DNA of 64,000 bases from Coriobacteriia bacterium (GTDB lineage Bacteria; Actinomycetota; Coriobacteriia; Anaerosomatales; SLCP01). The stretch's first letter is position 1. The number at the start of each line of letters is the position of its first letter. Below the pieces are notes generated by a model. That model made no database searches. It was not told the origin of the DNA and saw nothing but the letters and a program-made list of their open reading frames with translations. Shown piece after piece: positions 14,184 to 19,935 of the stretch. The stretch spans positions 47,580 through 111,579 of the forward strand of contig JAUVXE010000006.1 in the NCBI GenBank assembly GCA_030603745.1. Reading direction: 5' to 3'. Both the position numbers and the translations under genes were made by a program.

Positions 14184-14732
14184 TCAGGAGCTCGGCATGT
14201 CCGCCTTGGTGCGGATAGAGGCGATGATGCCGGCATCGACATCTGTCGCATCCGAGACCTGGGGCGTCACGCCGTGCTCGGCGAGGATCTCCATGACCGC
14301 GGAGACCGCGGTGGGAAGGGCGGCCTCCACCTCCGGCGTGAGCTCGGTGACCCACTGCTCGAGGCTGCCGACCTGGATACCGATGCAGACGGCCGCGGGC
14401 TCGATGCCCGTCAGGCGCGCAGCCTCGAGGACGTCGGCGAACTTGGTGTCGTGGAGCGAGTGCATGATCTGGTTGGGAGCCAGGTCCTCCGGGCTCAGAA
14501 GCACCACCGTCCCCGGCGGGTGCCCGGTGTTGTCGATCGCGTCCACCACGATCACCAGGTCCCGGTCTCGGAAGAGGTTCATGATGCCGAGGCCCATGGT
14601 GCCCGCGTCGACGACCTCGACGGAGTCGGGGAACTCGTAGCCGGACATGAGGAGCTCGGCGACACGGACGCCGACCCCTTCGTCGGTCATGAGGGGGTTG
14701 CCGATGCCCATCACGAGGATGCGTTCGGTCAT
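14184..14732 (-). CDS. hyaD: Hydrogenase maturation protease (HyaD/HycI family)
   Basis: The 182-residue protein matches the hydrogenase endopeptidase family: GIGNPLMTDEGVGVRVAE at residues 9-26, with the conserved acidic residue that contacts nickel, and VVDAID near 62. These proteases cut the C-terminal tail of the [NiFe] large subunit after the His of DPCxxCxxH once nickel is inserted. The obvious client is the large subunit at 17,074-18,720, which carries a 20-residue tail after that His; the second hydrogenase in the window has none. It lies 20 bases upstream of the phosphatase gene. Confidence 0.92.
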   Translation of the reverse strand: MTERILVMGIGNPLMTDEGVGVRVAELLMSGYEFPDSVEVVDAGTMGLGIMNLFRDRDLVIVVDAIDNTGHPPGTVVLLSPEDLAPNQIMHSLHDTKFADVLEAARLTGIEPAAVCIGIQVGSLEQWVTELTPEVEAALPTAVSAVMEILAEHGVTPQVSDATDVDAGIIASIRTKADMPSS

Positions 14733-14801: not shown

Positions 14802-16130
14802 CTAGCCGGCGGCCAGGCGCTCGGACGCGTCGGCCCCGTCGCAGCCCTCTCCCTCGAGGAGCAGCATACGCTCCTCGAGCGGAAGCGCCTCCCGCGCGTG
14901 GTCGCGCAGGTCGTTGGAGCTGGCGAGGGTCTCCCTCATGATCACCATCAGCAGATAGCGGCCCTTCTCGGTCAGCGTGATGTAACGGCCGTCGTCACCC
15001 GCGATGCCGCCGGTCAGGCGCATGAACGCGAGCTCGGCGGCGAGCGCCCGCTCCACCGGCACGCCGAAGTCCCGGCGGAACCGCTCCTTGTCGAGCCGCA
15101 GGCCGAAGAGATCCGTCACGAACCGGTATCGGTAGCGTGCGGTCTTGGTGTAGGGGAGGCCCTCCTTGGCGACCGACATCCGGCCGGCGCCGATGAGGTC
15201 CGAGTACTCCTTCAGTGAGAAGGTGTTGCCGTAGATGCGGCCGTCGAGGAAGGAGAGCGCCCCCGAGCCGATCCCCACGTACTCCCCGAAGTCGACGATG
15301 TACTCGTCGATCATCGAGTCGACATCTCGGGAGTAGGTCCACGCGGAGGTCGCGGTGAACTCATCGGACAGCGCGTCGGCGATGATCCGGTAGTAGCGGG
15401 CCTCGCGCGCGTAGTCGATGTGGCCGACCGCTCGCGCGAGCTCCACCCGCGTCTTGGGCGAGGCCATGAGCGGGTAGAACGTGGTCTGGTTCGCGCCGGA
15501 GGCCTTGAGTAGGCTGATGTCGCGTCGCAGCATCTCCTCGGTCTGTGAGGGGAAGTTGAAGATCATGTCGACGTTGAGCGAGTGGAACTGGCCCGCGACC
15601 GAACGGATCTGGTCGAAGACCTCCAGGCCGCTCCCGTACTTCTCGTAGCGGTCCATCTGTCGCAGGAGGGTGTCGTCGAAGCTCTGGATGCCCACCGAGA
15701 GGCGCTGCACCCGATCCTGGAGCGCGTCCACCAGCTCGGGTCCGAGGTGGTTCGGGCTGGTCTCGCTCGACACCTCCTCGATGGAGAAGAGCTCGCGTGC
15801 GAGGTCGATGGTCTCGCTCAGCTCGTCGAGGAGGATCGTCGGCGTCCCTCCGCCGATGTAGAGCGACGGGAAGTCGTACCCGAGATCCGCGACCATGCGC
15901 ATCTCGGCCCTCAGGTCGCGGAAGTAGGCCCGCGCTCGGTCCTCCCGGTAGAGGAAGCGGTTGAACGAGCAGTAGAGGCAGAGCCGCTCGCAGAAGGGCA
16001 CGTGCGCGTAGAGCACGTAGGAGCGCCCAGGGGTGGGGGCGGGGAGCGAGTCTCTCTGGGTGGGTCGCTGATGGAGATAGGAGCGGTTCAGGACACGAAG
16101 CGCGGACGTGATGACGCGTTCGGACAGCAT
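14802..16130 (-). CDS. HemN/HemW-like radical SAM protein (coproporphyrinogen III oxidase family)
   Basis: The 442-residue protein carries the radical SAM ligands C47, C51 and C54 in CERLCLYCSF, then IGGGTPT near 102 and SVGIQSF near 152, the HemN/HemW/HutW pattern. The family includes oxygen-independent coproporphyrinogen oxidases, heme chaperones and anaerobic heme-degrading methyltransferases; which applies is unclear. The first upstream Met of the frame (16274) gives an unconserved Arg-rich extension, whereas ATG 16130 has AGAGAGGAA in front. Its position beside a cytochrome-b hydrogenase suggests a role in heme supply or insertion. Confidence 0.82.
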   Translation of the reverse strand: MLSERVITSALRVLNRSYLHQRPTQRDSLPAPTPGRSYVLYAHVPFCERLCLYCSFNRFLYREDRARAYFRDLRAEMRMVADLGYDFPSLYIGGGTPTILLDELSETIDLARELFSIEEVSSETSPNHLGPELVDALQDRVQRLSVGIQSFDDTLLRQMDRYEKYGSGLEVFDQIRSVAGQFHSLNVDMIFNFPSQTEEMLRRDISLLKASGANQTTFYPLMASPKTRVELARAVGHIDYAREARYYRIIADALSDEFTATSAWTYSRDVDSMIDEYIVDFGEYVGIGSGALSFLDGRIYGNTFSLKEYSDLIGAGRMSVAKEGLPYTKTARYRYRFVTDLFGLRLDKERFRRDFGVPVERALAAELAFMRLTGGIAGDDGRYITLTEKGRYLLMVIMRETLASSNDLRDHAREALPLEERMLLLEGEGCDGADASERLAAG

Positions 16131-16253
16131 TCGGTTCCTCTCTGACGATCGAGCTGTTCGTGCGCCGGTTGGTGCGGGTCGTGCTCCGCCGGTCGCGACC
16201 CCGCCGATCTGGATCGGCGCCCCTTCGCGCGAGCGGTCCCGCCTGGTGCGTGG

Positions 16254-16277
16254 GGCATGTGAAATCTCCCACATGCC
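16254..16277. promoter_or_regulatory. Crp-like palindrome upstream of the radical SAM-hyaD unit
   Basis: GGCATGTG and CACATGCC form a perfect 8-bp inverted repeat around eight bases. Inside is TGTGA-N6-CCACA (16258-16273), one mismatch from the Crp consensus TGTGA-N6-TCACA. On the minus strand it lies just after a TAGAGT hexamer and 124 bases before the radical SAM start. Confidence 0.55.
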
Positions 16278-16395: not shown

Positions 16396-17073
16396 CTAGT
16401 GCTCCGTACCGCCGACGATCTTGCCCTCGGCGTCGAACTGCAGGCCCTCCTCTTCCTTCCAGGCGAAGATGAGCCTGGAGGGGGAGAAGCCCTCGACGTT
16501 GGCGAGGTACGCGTGGATGGCCGTGAACAGGATGAACGCCCACATGAGGTAGTAGTGGATGATCCGCATGTTCATCGGGCCGCCGACAGCGTCGGTGCCT
16601 GCGGTGAAGAAGGCCCAGTCCATGACCGGCGCGTAGATCGCGAAGCCGGTGTAGGCAGCCGCAAGCGTGAGCGGCACGGTGGCGATGTAGGCGATCTTCT
16701 GGAGAACGCCGTACTTCGCGCCGATGGGGTGATCCTTCTTCAGGAAGATGTAGTACTTGATCCACGGGATCAGCTGGTGACGGTTGAGCTTCTGCGGCAG
16801 CCAGTTCTTGATGTCCGTGTCGACCTCACGCGAGCCGAGGCGGGTCGCCGACTTCACGAAGAATGCGGCGATGATGCGCACGGCAAGGTTGATGAGGAGC
16901 ACGTACATGAAGAAGAAGTGCATGCCGCGGGCGACACCCATGAACCCTGCGAAGAACGGGTAGTGGATGTAGAAGCCCGAGAACGCGAGCGCCACCATGG
17001 CGATCAGGTTGATCCAGTGCGTCATCACGAAGATGAACGGGTGTGCCTCACGGTAGTGTGCCGGATGCGACAT
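16396..17073 (-). CDS. hyaC: [NiFe]-hydrogenase b-type cytochrome subunit
   Basis: The 225-residue protein has four hydrophobic segments (about 14-36, 48-73, 124-148, 170-192) with His residues at their ends (H11, H18, H51, H173, H187), the layout of HyaC-type diheme cytochrome b. It anchors the hydrogenase and passes electrons from H2 to the quinone pool. Its ATG at 17073 directly abuts the true stop of the large subunit (TAG 17074-17076), a spacing seen only when the internal TGA is read through. It is the last gene of the small-large-cytochrome operon. Confidence 0.93.
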   Translation of the reverse strand: MSHPAHYREAHPFIFVMTHWINLIAMVALAFSGFYIHYPFFAGFMGVARGMHFFFMYVLLINLAVRIIAAFFVKSATRLGSREVDTDIKNWLPQKLNRHQLIPWIKYYIFLKKDHPIGAKYGVLQKIAYIATVPLTLAAAYTGFAIYAPVMDWAFFTAGTDAVGGPMNMRIIHYYLMWAFILFTAIHAYLANVEGFSPSRLIFAWKEEEGLQFDAEGKIVGGTEH

Positions 17074-18720
17074 CTACCTCACCCCCATCGGCTTCGTGTA
17101 GACGGTTGCTTCCTTGCCGGTCTTGGGTTCAATCACGTGAACCGCGCAACCGATTCAAGGATCGAAGCTGCGCGCGATGCGGCAGGCCTCGAGCGGACGC
17201 TCCGGGTCGATGATGGGAGTGCCCACGAGGGCCTCCTCCATCGGGCCGCGGACGCCCTGGTCGTCGCGGGACGAGCAGTCCCACGTGGACGGCGTGACGA
17301 CCTGGTAGCGGTCGATCTTGCCGCCCTGGATGTCGATGAAGTGGGCGAGCGCACCGCGGGGAGCTTCCCACAGACCGGCGCCCATGCCCTCGTCGACGTT
17401 GTGCGGCTCGAAGTACTTCGAGTCGCCACCGGCGATGGCCTCGATGAGCTCGTTGCACCACTCGAGCGACCAGTCGCAGACGACCTTGGTCTCGAGGTTG
17501 CGGGCCGCGATGCGGCCGAGCAGCGAGACGAGGACCTCGGGGCGACCGGCGGCGCCGAGAGCGGCGAGCGCGCCGTCGACGATCTCCTGGACCGGCTGCA
17601 CGCCACGCAGATAGGCGACGAGCATGCGGGAGAGGGGACCGGCCTCCATGGGGGCACCGTCGTAGCGCGGTGCCTTGCACCAGGAGTAACGGGCCTCGGT
17701 GTTGTACTCGTCGAACATGGCGTCCGCCTCACCCACGGAGGGGTGGAGGCCGCTGGCCGACTCGTACCAGGAGCGCTGAACGTCCTCGGAGAGGACCGAG
17801 GGGTCGGCGTCGGCGACCGTGAGGCCGTCGGCGACCTTGATGACGCCCGCGGGGAGGTAGCGGTTGTTCATCTCGAACGAGTCGTCGTTGAAGACGCCCC
17901 ACGCGAGGAAGTTCCCGTGGCCTCCACCGTACTCGAGGGCGCCTGCGTAGAACGGCGCGATCGCGAGGGTGTCGGGGATCATCGTGTTCGTGACCCAGTC
18001 GTTGAGCTTGATGAAACGGAACAGGATGTCATCAAGCTTGTTCTCGGTGGGCACGAACGAGGTACCACCGGGGATCGAGGTCATGAAGTGCGGGAACTTG
18101 CCGCCCATGACCGCGATGATCTCGGCGGCGACGGCCTGCATCTCAAGCGCCTCGAGGTAGTGCGCGACGCCGATCAGGTGAAGCTCGGCGGGCATGTCCT
18201 CGGCGTACGCCGGGTGCCCGAACCAGCCGTTGGTGAAGATGGAGAGCTGGCCGTTGTCGACGAACGCCTGCAGGCGCTTGGCGACCGCCCCGAAGTCCGA
18301 GACACCGGTGCCGGCGGCCTGCGCGAGCGCATACGTGTCGGCGATGTCGGCGGAGAGGGCCTTCACCGGATCGACGTAGTCGAGTGCCGCCAGCGTGTAG
18401 AACCACAGGATGTGGCTGTGGATGTACTGGGCGGCCTCGATCAGGTTACGGACGATACGAGCGTTGTTCGGGATCGTGATGCCGAGGGCGTCCTCGGTCG
18501 ACATCGTGGAGGCGTGACCGTGAGAGATCGGGCACACGCCGCAGATACGCTGTGCGACGAAGAACGCGTCGGAGGGCCGGCGGTCGAGGAGGATCTTCTC
18601 CATGCCTCGGTACAGCCCGCCGGACACCCAGGCGTCGGTGACGACACCGTCGTTGACCTCGACCTCGACACGCAGGTGTCCCTCGATTCGAGTCAACGGA
18701 TCGACCACTTGACGAGCCAC
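17074..18720 (-). CDS. hyaB: [NiFeSe] hydrogenase large subunit with selenocysteine at TGA 17155-17157
   Basis: The conventional frame runs 521 codons from 18720 and stops at TGA (17157-17155) just after RSFDP. The family requires DPCxxCxxH there, with both cysteines binding Ni-Fe. Reading TGA as Sec gives D520 P521 U522 I G C525 A V H528 plus 20 residues to TAG at 17074. The N-terminal metal motif RICGVCPISH (C60, C63) is intact, so the active site is otherwise complete. Without read-through the protein would lack three essential ligands or processing residues. The 20-residue tail after H528 is the expected target of the maturation protease encoded downstream. The protein oxidises H2 as partner of the Tat-exported small subunit. 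A SECIS-like hairpin follows the TGA. The alternative, a nonsense mutation, is unlikely given the preserved downstream codons. Confidence 0.9.
17126..17154 (-). promoter_or_regulatory. Bacterial SECIS-like element directly downstream of the Sec codon
   Basis: Counting from the base after UGA, nucleotides 12-17 (GGUUCA) pair perfectly with 24-29 (UGAACC) around a six-base loop CGUGAU. The loop has G as its second base and a GU at 19-20. Stem position, size and loop closely mirror the E. coli fdhF SECIS, which also starts its upper stem about 12 bases after UGA. GGUUGC (4-9) could additionally pair with GCAACC 46-51 bases after UGA. Confidence 0.8.
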
Positions 18721-19889
18721 TATTTACCGCCTCCCTTCTTCATCCGCTTGCGGTCATGCTCCTTCATCTCCTCATAGGGAGCACCGCCGTCCATGCGGCC
18801 GGTGGCCTTCATGCCGAGGCCGTGGGCGACGAGGCCCGCCGCGGCGACTCCGGCCACCACGCCGGCGATGACACCCGGCTGGGTGTTACCGACGTTGGGC
18901 AGCGGCAGGTCGCGGTGGCGGTTCAGGAACGGTGCACCGACGTCGACCCAGTCCAGGCTGCCGCAGCCGATGCAGGGAGCGCCGGCTTCGACGCACCAGC
19001 TCGCCCTGCGGTTCCAGCGAACGATCGGGCAGTTGGTGTAGGTCTGCGGACCCTTGCAGCCGACCTTGTACAGGCAGTAGCCGAGGGCCTCCTCCTCCGA
19101 GCCGAACTCCGAGACGAAGTTGCCGTTCTCGAAGTGGCCGCGACGAGGGCAGTTGTCGTGGATGGTCTGGCCGAAGATGTACTTCGGGCGGCCGAACCGG
19201 TCCAGCTTGTCGAGGATCGCACCGCTCTCGAGCGAGCCGAGCAGCAGCACGTCGACGACGATCGCCACGACCCACTCCGGGTTGACCGGGCAGGTCGGCA
19301 GGTTCACGACCGGGGTCGAGATGCCCTTCTCGTCGAGGTACATCTGGACGCCGGTGGCGTCAGCGGGGTTCGGGGCGGCCATGACGAAGCCACCGTCGAC
19401 CGCGCAGGAGCCGACCGCCACGATGGCGGCCGCGCCCGGTGCGGCGTGATCGAGCTCTTCGAGACCGGTCTTGCCGCCGATACGAAGGCTGTTGCCGTCG
19501 AAGCCCTTCATGACGGAGCCCTCGTAGATGAGGATGTACTCACCCTCCTTCTCGAAGACCGCTTCGGCGGCGTCGAGAGCGTCCTGGCCCTGGGCCATCG
19601 AGAGCGTCTCCATGAAGTCGATGGAGAGGATCTCAAGGACGACCGTGGCGACGTCAGGCGAGTCCGCCTGCGCCATCGACTCAGTGCAGCCGGTGCACGC
19701 TCCACCGTTCAGCCATACCGCGGGCTGCAGCTTCGCGCCCTGGTTGATCGCGCGAGCGATCTCAGGGACGAACGCCTGCGAGAGCCCGAGCATCGCTGCC
19801 AGCGAGCCGCAGTACTTGAGGAAATCGCGACGCGACACGCCTCTCGCTGCGAGAAGGTCGTAGATCACATCGTGGTCCTCATGCGCCAT
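18720..19889 (-). CDS. hyaA: [NiFe]-hydrogenase small subunit, Tat exported and membrane anchored
   Basis: The 389-residue protein has a twin-arginine signal (SRRDFLK at 19-25) followed by a hydrophobic stretch. Proximal-cluster cysteines C65 and C68 sit in GGACTGCTES. Downstream are the cluster ligands in GSCAVDGG, LPTCPVNPE, HDNCPRRGHFENG and GYCLYKVGCKGP, and a C-terminal hydrophobic anchor (about 335-358). It relays electrons from the Ni site to cytochrome b. ATG 19889 is chosen because AAGGAGG lies eight bases upstream; a GTG at 19898 would sit inside that Shine-Dalgarno. It overlaps the large-subunit start by one base. Confidence 0.95.
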   Translation of the reverse strand: MAHEDHDVIYDLLAARGVSRRDFLKYCGSLAAMLGLSQAFVPEIARAINQGAKLQPAVWLNGGACTGCTESMAQADSPDVATVVLEILSIDFMETLSMAQGQDALDAAEAVFEKEGEYILIYEGSVMKGFDGNSLRIGGKTGLEELDHAAPGAAAIVAVGSCAVDGGFVMAAPNPADATGVQMYLDEKGISTPVVNLPTCPVNPEWVVAIVVDVLLLGSLESGAILDKLDRFGRPKYIFGQTIHDNCPRRGHFENGNFVSEFGSEEEALGYCLYKVGCKGPQTYTNCPIVRWNRRASWCVEAGAPCIGCGSLDWVDVGAPFLNRHRDLPLPNVGNTQPGVIAGVVAGVAAAGLVAHGLGMKATGRMDGGAPYEEMKEHDRKRMKKGGGK

Positions 19890-19935
19890 GCCATACACCT
19901 CCTTGTACGAATACCGGATCTTCCCGTGCTGCTCC

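What the first reader, a model, noticed from the sequence alone, without database searches (positions are those of the whole stretch)
17074..18720. Selenocysteine-containing [NiFeSe] hydrogenase hidden by an apparent TGA stop
Seen: the large subunit frame stops at TGA right after RSFDP. The next codons encode I-G-C-A-V-H and 20 more residues to TAG, and that TAG abuts the cytochrome b ATG with no gap. Established: [NiFeSe] hydrogenases carry Sec at the first Cys of DPCxxCxxH, where it binds Ni. Inference: U522 is real, giving a complete active site and processing tail. Automatic gene callers would truncate the protein and lose two active-site residues and the protease site. A group 1 Sec hydrogenase with a cytochrome b subunit in this kind of actinobacterial genome may not be described.
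Basis: partly seen in the sequence, partly recalled or inferred. Interest (0 to 1): 0.95.

Follow-up and report, generated by a model that had tools for sequence, protein, structure and literature searches.

The report
Overlooked selenium hydrogenase of subsurface actinobacteria
In this actinobacterium the gene for a hydrogen-using enzyme is interrupted by a UGA codon that is predicted to be read as selenocysteine at the nickel site; the same UGA stands in 55 of 61 genomes searched from its order, and 216 of 224 related proteins listed from public collections end exactly there, so a selenium enzyme has probably been overlooked across a whole order of bacteria.

Summary
The large subunit runs 18720 to 17074; TGA (17157-17155) stands where [NiFe] hydrogenases have the first Cys of the C-terminal CxxC, followed by IGCAVH, a 20-residue tail, and TAG abutting the cytochrome b ATG. 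The same assembly carries selA, selB, tRNA-Sec and a selD with its own TGA. A SECIS-like hairpin follows 11 nt after the UGA, with compensatory changes in relatives. 55 of 61 order genomes carry this TGA; the one genome found with only a Cys form (G022, 99% complete) lacks selA and selB. 119 of the 120 best public hits end at FDP.
By active site it is a [NiFeSe] enzyme; by descent it is not Desulfovibrio HysA: curated HysA and NiFeSe models are missed and trees reject grouping with HysA (AU p 0.0009). It groups with Coriobacteriia-type (HydDB 1i) uptake hydrogenases, for which HydDB lists no selenium variant. A 2022 paper on two cultured order members calls theirs [NiFe] 1i without mention of selenocysteine; a 2026 review restricts [NiFeSe] to sulfate reducers and methanogens. 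Incorporation of selenium is inferred, not measured. Against: 12 of the 55 genomes show no selB; three of these show no clear sel gene at all.

The parts
18720..19898 (-). hydrogenase small subunit with TAT signal; medial-cluster motif WCV (Cys where D. gigas-type enzymes have Pro)
   Evidence: TIGR00391 308.1 bits, TIGR01409 TAT signal 26.7 bits, both over cut-off; alignments to 1h2a_S and 1yq9_A (WPV) and to 2wpn_A, a NiFeSe small subunit (WCV)
17074..18720 (-). hydrogenase large subunit read through the TGA: 548 aa; its GTG start shares one base with the small-subunit TAG
   Evidence: PF00374 548.8 bits; best PDB match 1frf_L 454.7 bits
17155..17157 (-). TGA codon 522, predicted selenocysteine, aligned to the first Cys of the C-terminal CxxC motif
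   Evidence: TGA in 55 of 61 order genomes
17126..17143 (-). SECIS-like hairpin GGUUCA-CGUGAU-UGAACC, beginning after 11 nt behind the UGA
   Evidence: fold -15 kcal/mol; covariation in relatives
17077..17136 (-). C-terminal extension of 20 residues after H528, predicted to be cut off by the maturation protease
   Evidence: PDB large subunits such as 4u9h_L and 4urh_Q align to query residues 5-528 and end there
16396..17073 (-). cytochrome b subunit, start codon directly after the large-subunit TAG
   Evidence: PF01292 76.3 bits, cut-off 30.1; TIGR02125 99.8 bits, under its cut-off of 121.5
14184..14732 (-). hydrogenase maturation protease (HyaD/HybD superfamily)
   Evidence: PF01750 103.8 bits; TIGR00072 132.1 bits, over cut-off
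14802..16274 (-). coproporphyrinogen oxidase/HemW-like radical SAM protein between cytochrome b and protease; link to the hydrogenase unknown
   Evidence: NF006385 497.3 bits, over cut-off

Best explanation
This is a membrane-bound uptake hydrogenase, by sequence, whose UGA codon 522 is very likely translated as selenocysteine, which would place selenium on the nickel of the active site. Shown by sequence: the UGA, the intact motif and tail behind it, a hairpin of SECIS form, a selD-selA-selB-selC set on another contig of the same assembly, a TAT-type small subunit, a cytochrome b and a maturation protease. Inferred: SelB with Sec-tRNA-Sec decodes the UGA at the hairpin; the 20-residue tail is cut after H528; the enzyme is exported by the TAT path, oxidises H2 outside the membrane and passes electrons over three [4Fe-4S] clusters (medial Cys in place of Pro) and cytochrome b to quinone. 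By active site it is a [NiFeSe] hydrogenase; by descent it belongs with the Coriobacteriia-type (HydDB 1i) enzymes and not with Desulfovibrio HysA.
For: selC 72.1 bits, cut-off 47, anticodon tca by ARAGORN; selB 375.9 bits, cut-off 242 (the selB model is over cut-off in 2 of 14 control genomes); selA 593 bits, cut-off 268; selD 368 bits, cut-off 125, with its own in-frame TGA. Hairpin: fold; in 52 family sequences the 45-nt stretch folds better than synonymous recodings (median z -1.87, 69% at or below -1.5; 312 control windows of the same genes: mean -0.24, 12%); covariation score 0.181 against 0.040 in shuffles and 0.000-0.009 when slid (37 of the 47 distinct sequences), 0.116 against 0.036 with all 47. 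Sec rows of the family pair 5.46 of 7 positions against 3.61 expected from synonymous recoding; 22 Cys rows (20 sisters, L060, L112) 3.5 against 3.35. TGA in 55 of 61 order genomes, 43 of these with selB. In a phylum sample all 24 genomes in which I found a Sec-motif hydrogenase have selB, against 38 of the 70 with only other related hydrogenases and 228 of 396 overall (E up to 1e-60). G022, 99% complete, Cys form only, has no selA match, selB only under cut-off (EF-Tu-like range) and tRNA-Sec just under cut-off. A cytochrome b start follows directly in 48 of 49 family loci long enough to see it.
Against: No protein or selenium data. 12 of the 55 genomes with the TGA show no selB over cut-off. 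Of these 12, five have selA (G014, G016, G027, G033, G039), G032 a 68-bit tRNA-Sec, and G007, G053, G055 a selD with TGA; G034 has only a selD piece under cut-off; G005 has a borderline tRNA-Sec match (47.6 bits), and G026 none over cut-off. G053 (98% complete, 10 contigs) lacks selA and selB, and other genes follow its selD before the contig end, so a gap in the assembly is assumed there, not shown. The window's own fold is not exceptional against dinucleotide shuffles (z -1.26; 16 of 200 as good). In the covariation test 5 of 7 pairs never vary, and the number of pairs with double changes is no higher than in shuffles (329 of 500 reach it); with all 47 sequences a slide by one column scores slightly higher (0.123 against 0.116), owing to ten sequences with a shifted register. 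No Rfam family matches the hairpin. The tRNA-Sec model also passes its cut-off in control genomes such as Caulobacter and Thermus, so weak matches prove little. The phylum co-occurrence is not corrected for relatedness.
Confidence: 0.93

Rival explanations
1. The selenium form is ancestral to several group 1 clades and the Cys clades arose by repeated loss, so this is old retention and not a separate gain. (This rivals the origin, not the mechanism.)
For: The same 20-nt hairpin occurs in Sec clades only about 45% identical in protein. L060, a Cys protein nested among Sec proteins, keeps Gly at position +2 as in 52 of 52 Sec rows, as a reversion would; it is a long branch.
Against: Not excluded by my trees: the Sec state needs five changes and all Sec rows as one clade is rejected (AU p 4e-60), which does not separate gains from losses. 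The shared hairpin could be convergence under SelB binding on common VHVIEP codons, or transfer. No remnant hairpin was seen in Cys sisters.
Confidence: 0.4
2. TGA is a real stop and the 521-aa protein is the product (pseudogene or truncated enzyme).
For: Gene callers treat it so: 119 of the 120 best listed hits end at FDP.
Against: It would lose two of the four metal ligands and the processing site; codons behind the TGA are under protein-level constraint; of 53 family rows 52 have TGA, one TGC, none TAA or TAG; hairpin and sel genes are present.
Confidence: 0.02
3. A sequencing or assembly error turned TGC or TGT into TGA.
For: None found; the window is from a draft assembly.
Against: The same TGA in 55 of 61 separate genomes.
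Confidence: 0.01
4. It is an ordinary member of the known HysA [NiFeSe] family that moved into actinobacteria.
For: Same Sec position; xGCAVH as in HysA; medial-cluster Cys as in the NiFeSe small subunit 2wpn_A.
Against: NF045518 (HysA) 436 bits, cut-off 780; NF033181 517, cut-off 600; best PDB match is D. fructosovorans [NiFe] 454.7 bits against 344.8 for HysA; one clade with HysA is rejected (AU p 0.00085).
Confidence: 0.03

Closest known systems
HydDB group 1i, Coriobacteria-type [NiFe] hydrogenase (PMC5037454 and PMC9686372, passages read)
   Same: Small subunit, large subunit, cytochrome b, protease; class Coriobacteriia; the sister clade is the Cys form of class families f18 and f19 with Cys paralogues
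   Different: HydDB lists [NiFeSe] variants for 1a, 3a and 3c, not 1i; here the Ni-ligand codon is UGA with a SECIS-like hairpin
Desulfovibrio/Desulfomicrobium HysAB [NiFeSe] hydrogenase
   Same: Sec at the same ligand position, Gly two residues on, Cys at the medial cluster
   Different: Distant clade, curated HysA model missed by far; here a cytochrome b follows the large subunit (HysAB lacks one: recalled)
Desulfovibrio [NiFe] hydrogenases 1frf, 1h2a
   Same: Best solved relatives of the large subunit (454.7 and 446.7 bits), similar length and tail
   Different: Cys ligand; Pro at the medial cluster in 1h2a_S
E. coli Hyd-2 C546U variant (PMC11212049, passages read)
   Same: Laboratory exchange of the corresponding Cys for Sec in an enzyme outside HysA
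   Different: Engineered; here the exchange is found in nature across an order

Membership tests
[NiFeSe] hydrogenase (by active site) | UGA/Sec codon at the first Cys of the C-terminal CxxC Ni ligands | tested here: met
   U522 aligned to FDPC of 1frf
[NiFeSe] hydrogenase (by active site) | Sec insertion machinery in the same genome | tested here: met
   selA, selB, selC, selD; not complete in all relatives
[NiFeSe] hydrogenase (by active site) | SECIS directly after the UGA | tested here: met
   hairpin, recoding test and covariation; the loop and spacing of E. coli fdhF used for comparison are recalled; SelB binding not testable here
[NiFeSe] hydrogenase (by active site) | Selenium bound to Ni in the protein | not testable with these tools
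   needs mass spectrometry, 75Se or spectroscopy
HysA lineage | Over the cut-off of NF045518 (HysA) or NF033181 (NiFeSe) | tested here: not met
   436 of 780 and 517 of 600 bits
HysA lineage | Same clade as HysA | tested here: not met
   AU p 0.00085
HydDB group 1i | Groups with Coriobacteriia uptake hydrogenases | tested here: met
   joint clade with the Cys forms of class families f18 and f19, support 100/100; the Sec side 98/97
HydDB group 1i | Assigned 1i by the HydDB classifier | not tested
   classifier not at hand; published assignment for two cultured order members
HydDB group 1i | Cytochrome b subunit in the operon | tested here: met
   window 16396-17073; 48 of 49 family loci

The most novel reading that the evidence does not exclude
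A whole actinobacterial order (Anaerosomatales, OPB41) runs its respiratory H2 uptake on a selenium-nickel enzyme of a lineage separate from HysA, and this was missed because gene callers stop at the UGA, including in the two cultured type strains described as [NiFe] 1i. With two more Sec clades in the phylum, selenium at this ligand has been gained or kept several times in group 1 hydrogenases, with a near-identical SECIS hairpin.
Probability: 0.75. Interest if true: 0.78.

Novelty: new variant of a known kind. Interest (0 to 1): 0.68.

Why it matters
Natural [NiFeSe] enzymes are better H+ reducers with little H2 inhibition (PMC11212049, passages read); one sequence study placed the known and putative ones in a single clade, of few sulfate-reducing delta-proteobacteria (PMC4730141, passages read). 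A 2026 review (PMC13188914, passage read) says they occur only in sulfate reducers and methanogens. A second, cytochrome b-linked lineage gives an independent test of what selenium does at this ligand, with natural Cys sisters for comparison (G022, L086-L089) and, in Parvivirga and Anaerosoma, probable cultured hosts that grow on H2. It also predicts selenium dependence of H2-based growth in these subsurface bacteria, and calls for correcting the public annotation of the family.

Tried and rejected
Rejected: true stop, sequencing error, membership in HysA (see rivals). TGA as Trp: not favoured, since the TGA sits at a metal ligand and tRNA-Sec is present; genome-wide TGA usage was not tested. 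Two phylum hits with '1 TGA' (L168, L169) were first taken as possible Sec proteins; they carry Cys in the motif and the TGA is their normal stop. L063 and L065 were missed by my motif search because the last motif residue is Gln in place of His; added by hand. A remnant hairpin in Cys sisters was looked for and not found. Ten of 47 hairpin sequences pair in another register; one search leaves them out. Rows under 430 residues were left out of the trees, and 57 of 142 rows were used for the careful tree. A first count of cytochrome b neighbours used a loose pattern and is replaced. In one search only up to three candidates per genome were scored, so 24 Sec-motif genomes is a lower bound. Paper search was badly built (125,290 papers, ten listed, none on hydrogenases) and tells nothing. 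Structure prediction was not run.

Full report
Observation. The gene is on the minus strand. Under the standard code the large subunit is an ORF of 521 aa ending in RSFDP (window 18720-17155). With TGA read as Sec it has 548 aa: U522, IGCAVH, 20 more residues, TAG at 17076-17074 and the cytochrome b ATG at 17073. The start GTG shares one base with the stop of the TAT-type small subunit.

Organism. The window lies on contig C14 of a 2.14 Mb assembly, 98.5% complete.

Machinery. On contig C20 stand, all on the minus strand, selD (100181-101098, with its own in-frame TGA, 368 bits), selA (98107-99483, 593 bits), selB (96175-98061, 375.9 bits) and tRNA-Sec (95998-96090, 72.1 bits, anticodon tca). 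A formate dehydrogenase-like gene on C20 also has an in-frame TGA; its matches are under the family cut-off.

SECIS. The 48 nt from the UGA fold into a nested stem with a hairpin GGUUCA-CGUGAU-UGAACC. The window's fold alone is not exceptional against dinucleotide shuffles (z -1.26). Across 52 family sequences it is stronger than synonymous recodings (median z -1.87; control windows of the same genes mean -0.24). The two outer pairs change on both sides: CG/GC/AU and GC/CG; the other five never vary among the 37 sequences of the common register. Ten of 47 distinct sequences use a shifted register (GUCCAC/GUGGAC) and were left out; with them the covariation score is still above all 500 shuffles (0.116 against 0.036), but a slide by one column scores slightly higher (0.123), owing to those ten. 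Cys sisters show no excess pairing.

Conservation. 61 order genomes were searched, own one included; 60 have a match. 55 have the TGA at this motif. G022 has only a Cys form; G046, G051 and G052 have a Cys paralogue beside the Sec form. selB is over cut-off in 47 of 61 and in 43 of the 55. The 12 without it are told in the Against line. In a phylum sample of 396 genomes, 94 have a related hydrogenase at E up to 1e-60; in 24 I found the Sec motif, and all 24 have selB, against 38 of the other 70. All 52 Sec rows checked have Gly at Sec+2; of 20 Cys sisters 15 have Ala by pattern and the other five show Ala in the printed sequences.

Kinship. The best solved relatives are Desulfovibrio [NiFe] enzymes (1frf 454.7 bits), ahead of [NiFeSe] HysA (5jsu 344.8 bits). 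The NCBIfam HysA (NF045518) and NiFeSe (NF033181) models are missed. In a fast tree of 142 proteins and a careful tree of 57 the Sec state needs five changes; the window clade (53 Sec rows and one Cys in the fast tree) is sister to 20 Cys rows, which are the forms of class families f18 and f19 and the Cys paralogues L086-L089. One clade of the window family with HysA is rejected (p 0.00085), with the second Sec family too (p 1.3e-06), and all Sec rows together (p 4e-60). This does not tell gain from loss. The near-identical hairpin in the Sec clades leaves ancestral selenium with several losses open.

Annotation and literature. Of the 120 best hits listed from the protein collection (of 7971 scored matches) 119 end exactly at FDP and one reads Cys; over three searches 216 of 224 distinct listed hits end at FDP, six read Cys, two are partial. 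PMC9686372 (passages read) describes the cultured Anaerosoma tenue and Parvivirga hydrogeniphila with a group 1i [NiFe] hydrogenase, cytochrome b and protease; its text has no word beginning with 'seleno' and no 'selenium' (it mentions selenate and selenite as acceptors not used). Both have the TGA, selB and a selD with TGA. HydDB (PMC5037454, passages) calls the role of 1i undetermined and names [NiFeSe] variants for 1a, 3a, 3c. PMC13188914 (2026 review, passages) says [NiFeSe] enzymes are exclusive to sulfate-reducing and methanogenic microorganisms; PMC4730141 (passages) finds known and putative ones in one clade in a set of 76 delta-proteobacteria, 11 Clostridia and E. coli. Passages were also read in PMC8275790, PMC7325909, PMC1794560 and PMC9312934; none of the passages shown speaks of a selenium enzyme of this kind. 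Not finding a selenium 1i enzyme in print rests on paper searches of an open-access library, several with only part of the listing read; subscription papers are not covered.

Mechanism. Sec incorporation, tail cleavage, TAT export, cluster types and electron flow to quinone are inferred from homology. The medial-cluster Cys occurs in both Sec and Cys members of the family, so it is not tied to selenium. From the Hyd-2 C546U study (PMC11212049, passages) selenium at this ligand would favour H+ reduction and relieve H2 inhibition; whether that holds here is untested.

Noticed in passing
L090-L094, L120, L122-L126, L128-L132, L134: A second Sec hydrogenase family (FDPU..CxVHVIEP), about 45-50% identical to the window protein, in the same order and elsewhere in the phylum, with the same hairpin; for the one member compared (L090) the best solved relatives are also [NiFe].
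   Followed up: partly
L139, L145, L148, L158, L162, L163, L164, L167: A third Sec clade in the phylum; the four members tested (L139, L158, L162, L167) are over the cut-off of NF033181 but not of HysA.
   Followed up: partly
L021, L023, L124, L167 and others: The 20-nt hairpin CGGTTCACGTGATTGAACCG is identical in Sec clades that are far apart in protein sequence: shared origin, transfer or convergence is open.
   Followed up: partly
L063, L065: In two Sec proteins the last motif residue, His, is Gln (FDPUxGCGVQ), at the expected processing site.
   Followed up: no
G000 contig C20:57925-61383 (-): Formate dehydrogenase-like gene with an in-frame TGA, possibly a further selenoprotein.
   Followed up: no
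L169:1177-2649 (+): Distant large subunit whose frame stops directly after the motif His: no C-terminal extension to cut.
   Followed up: no
window 14802-16274: Coproporphyrinogen oxidase/HemW-like radical SAM gene between cytochrome b and the protease.
   Followed up: no
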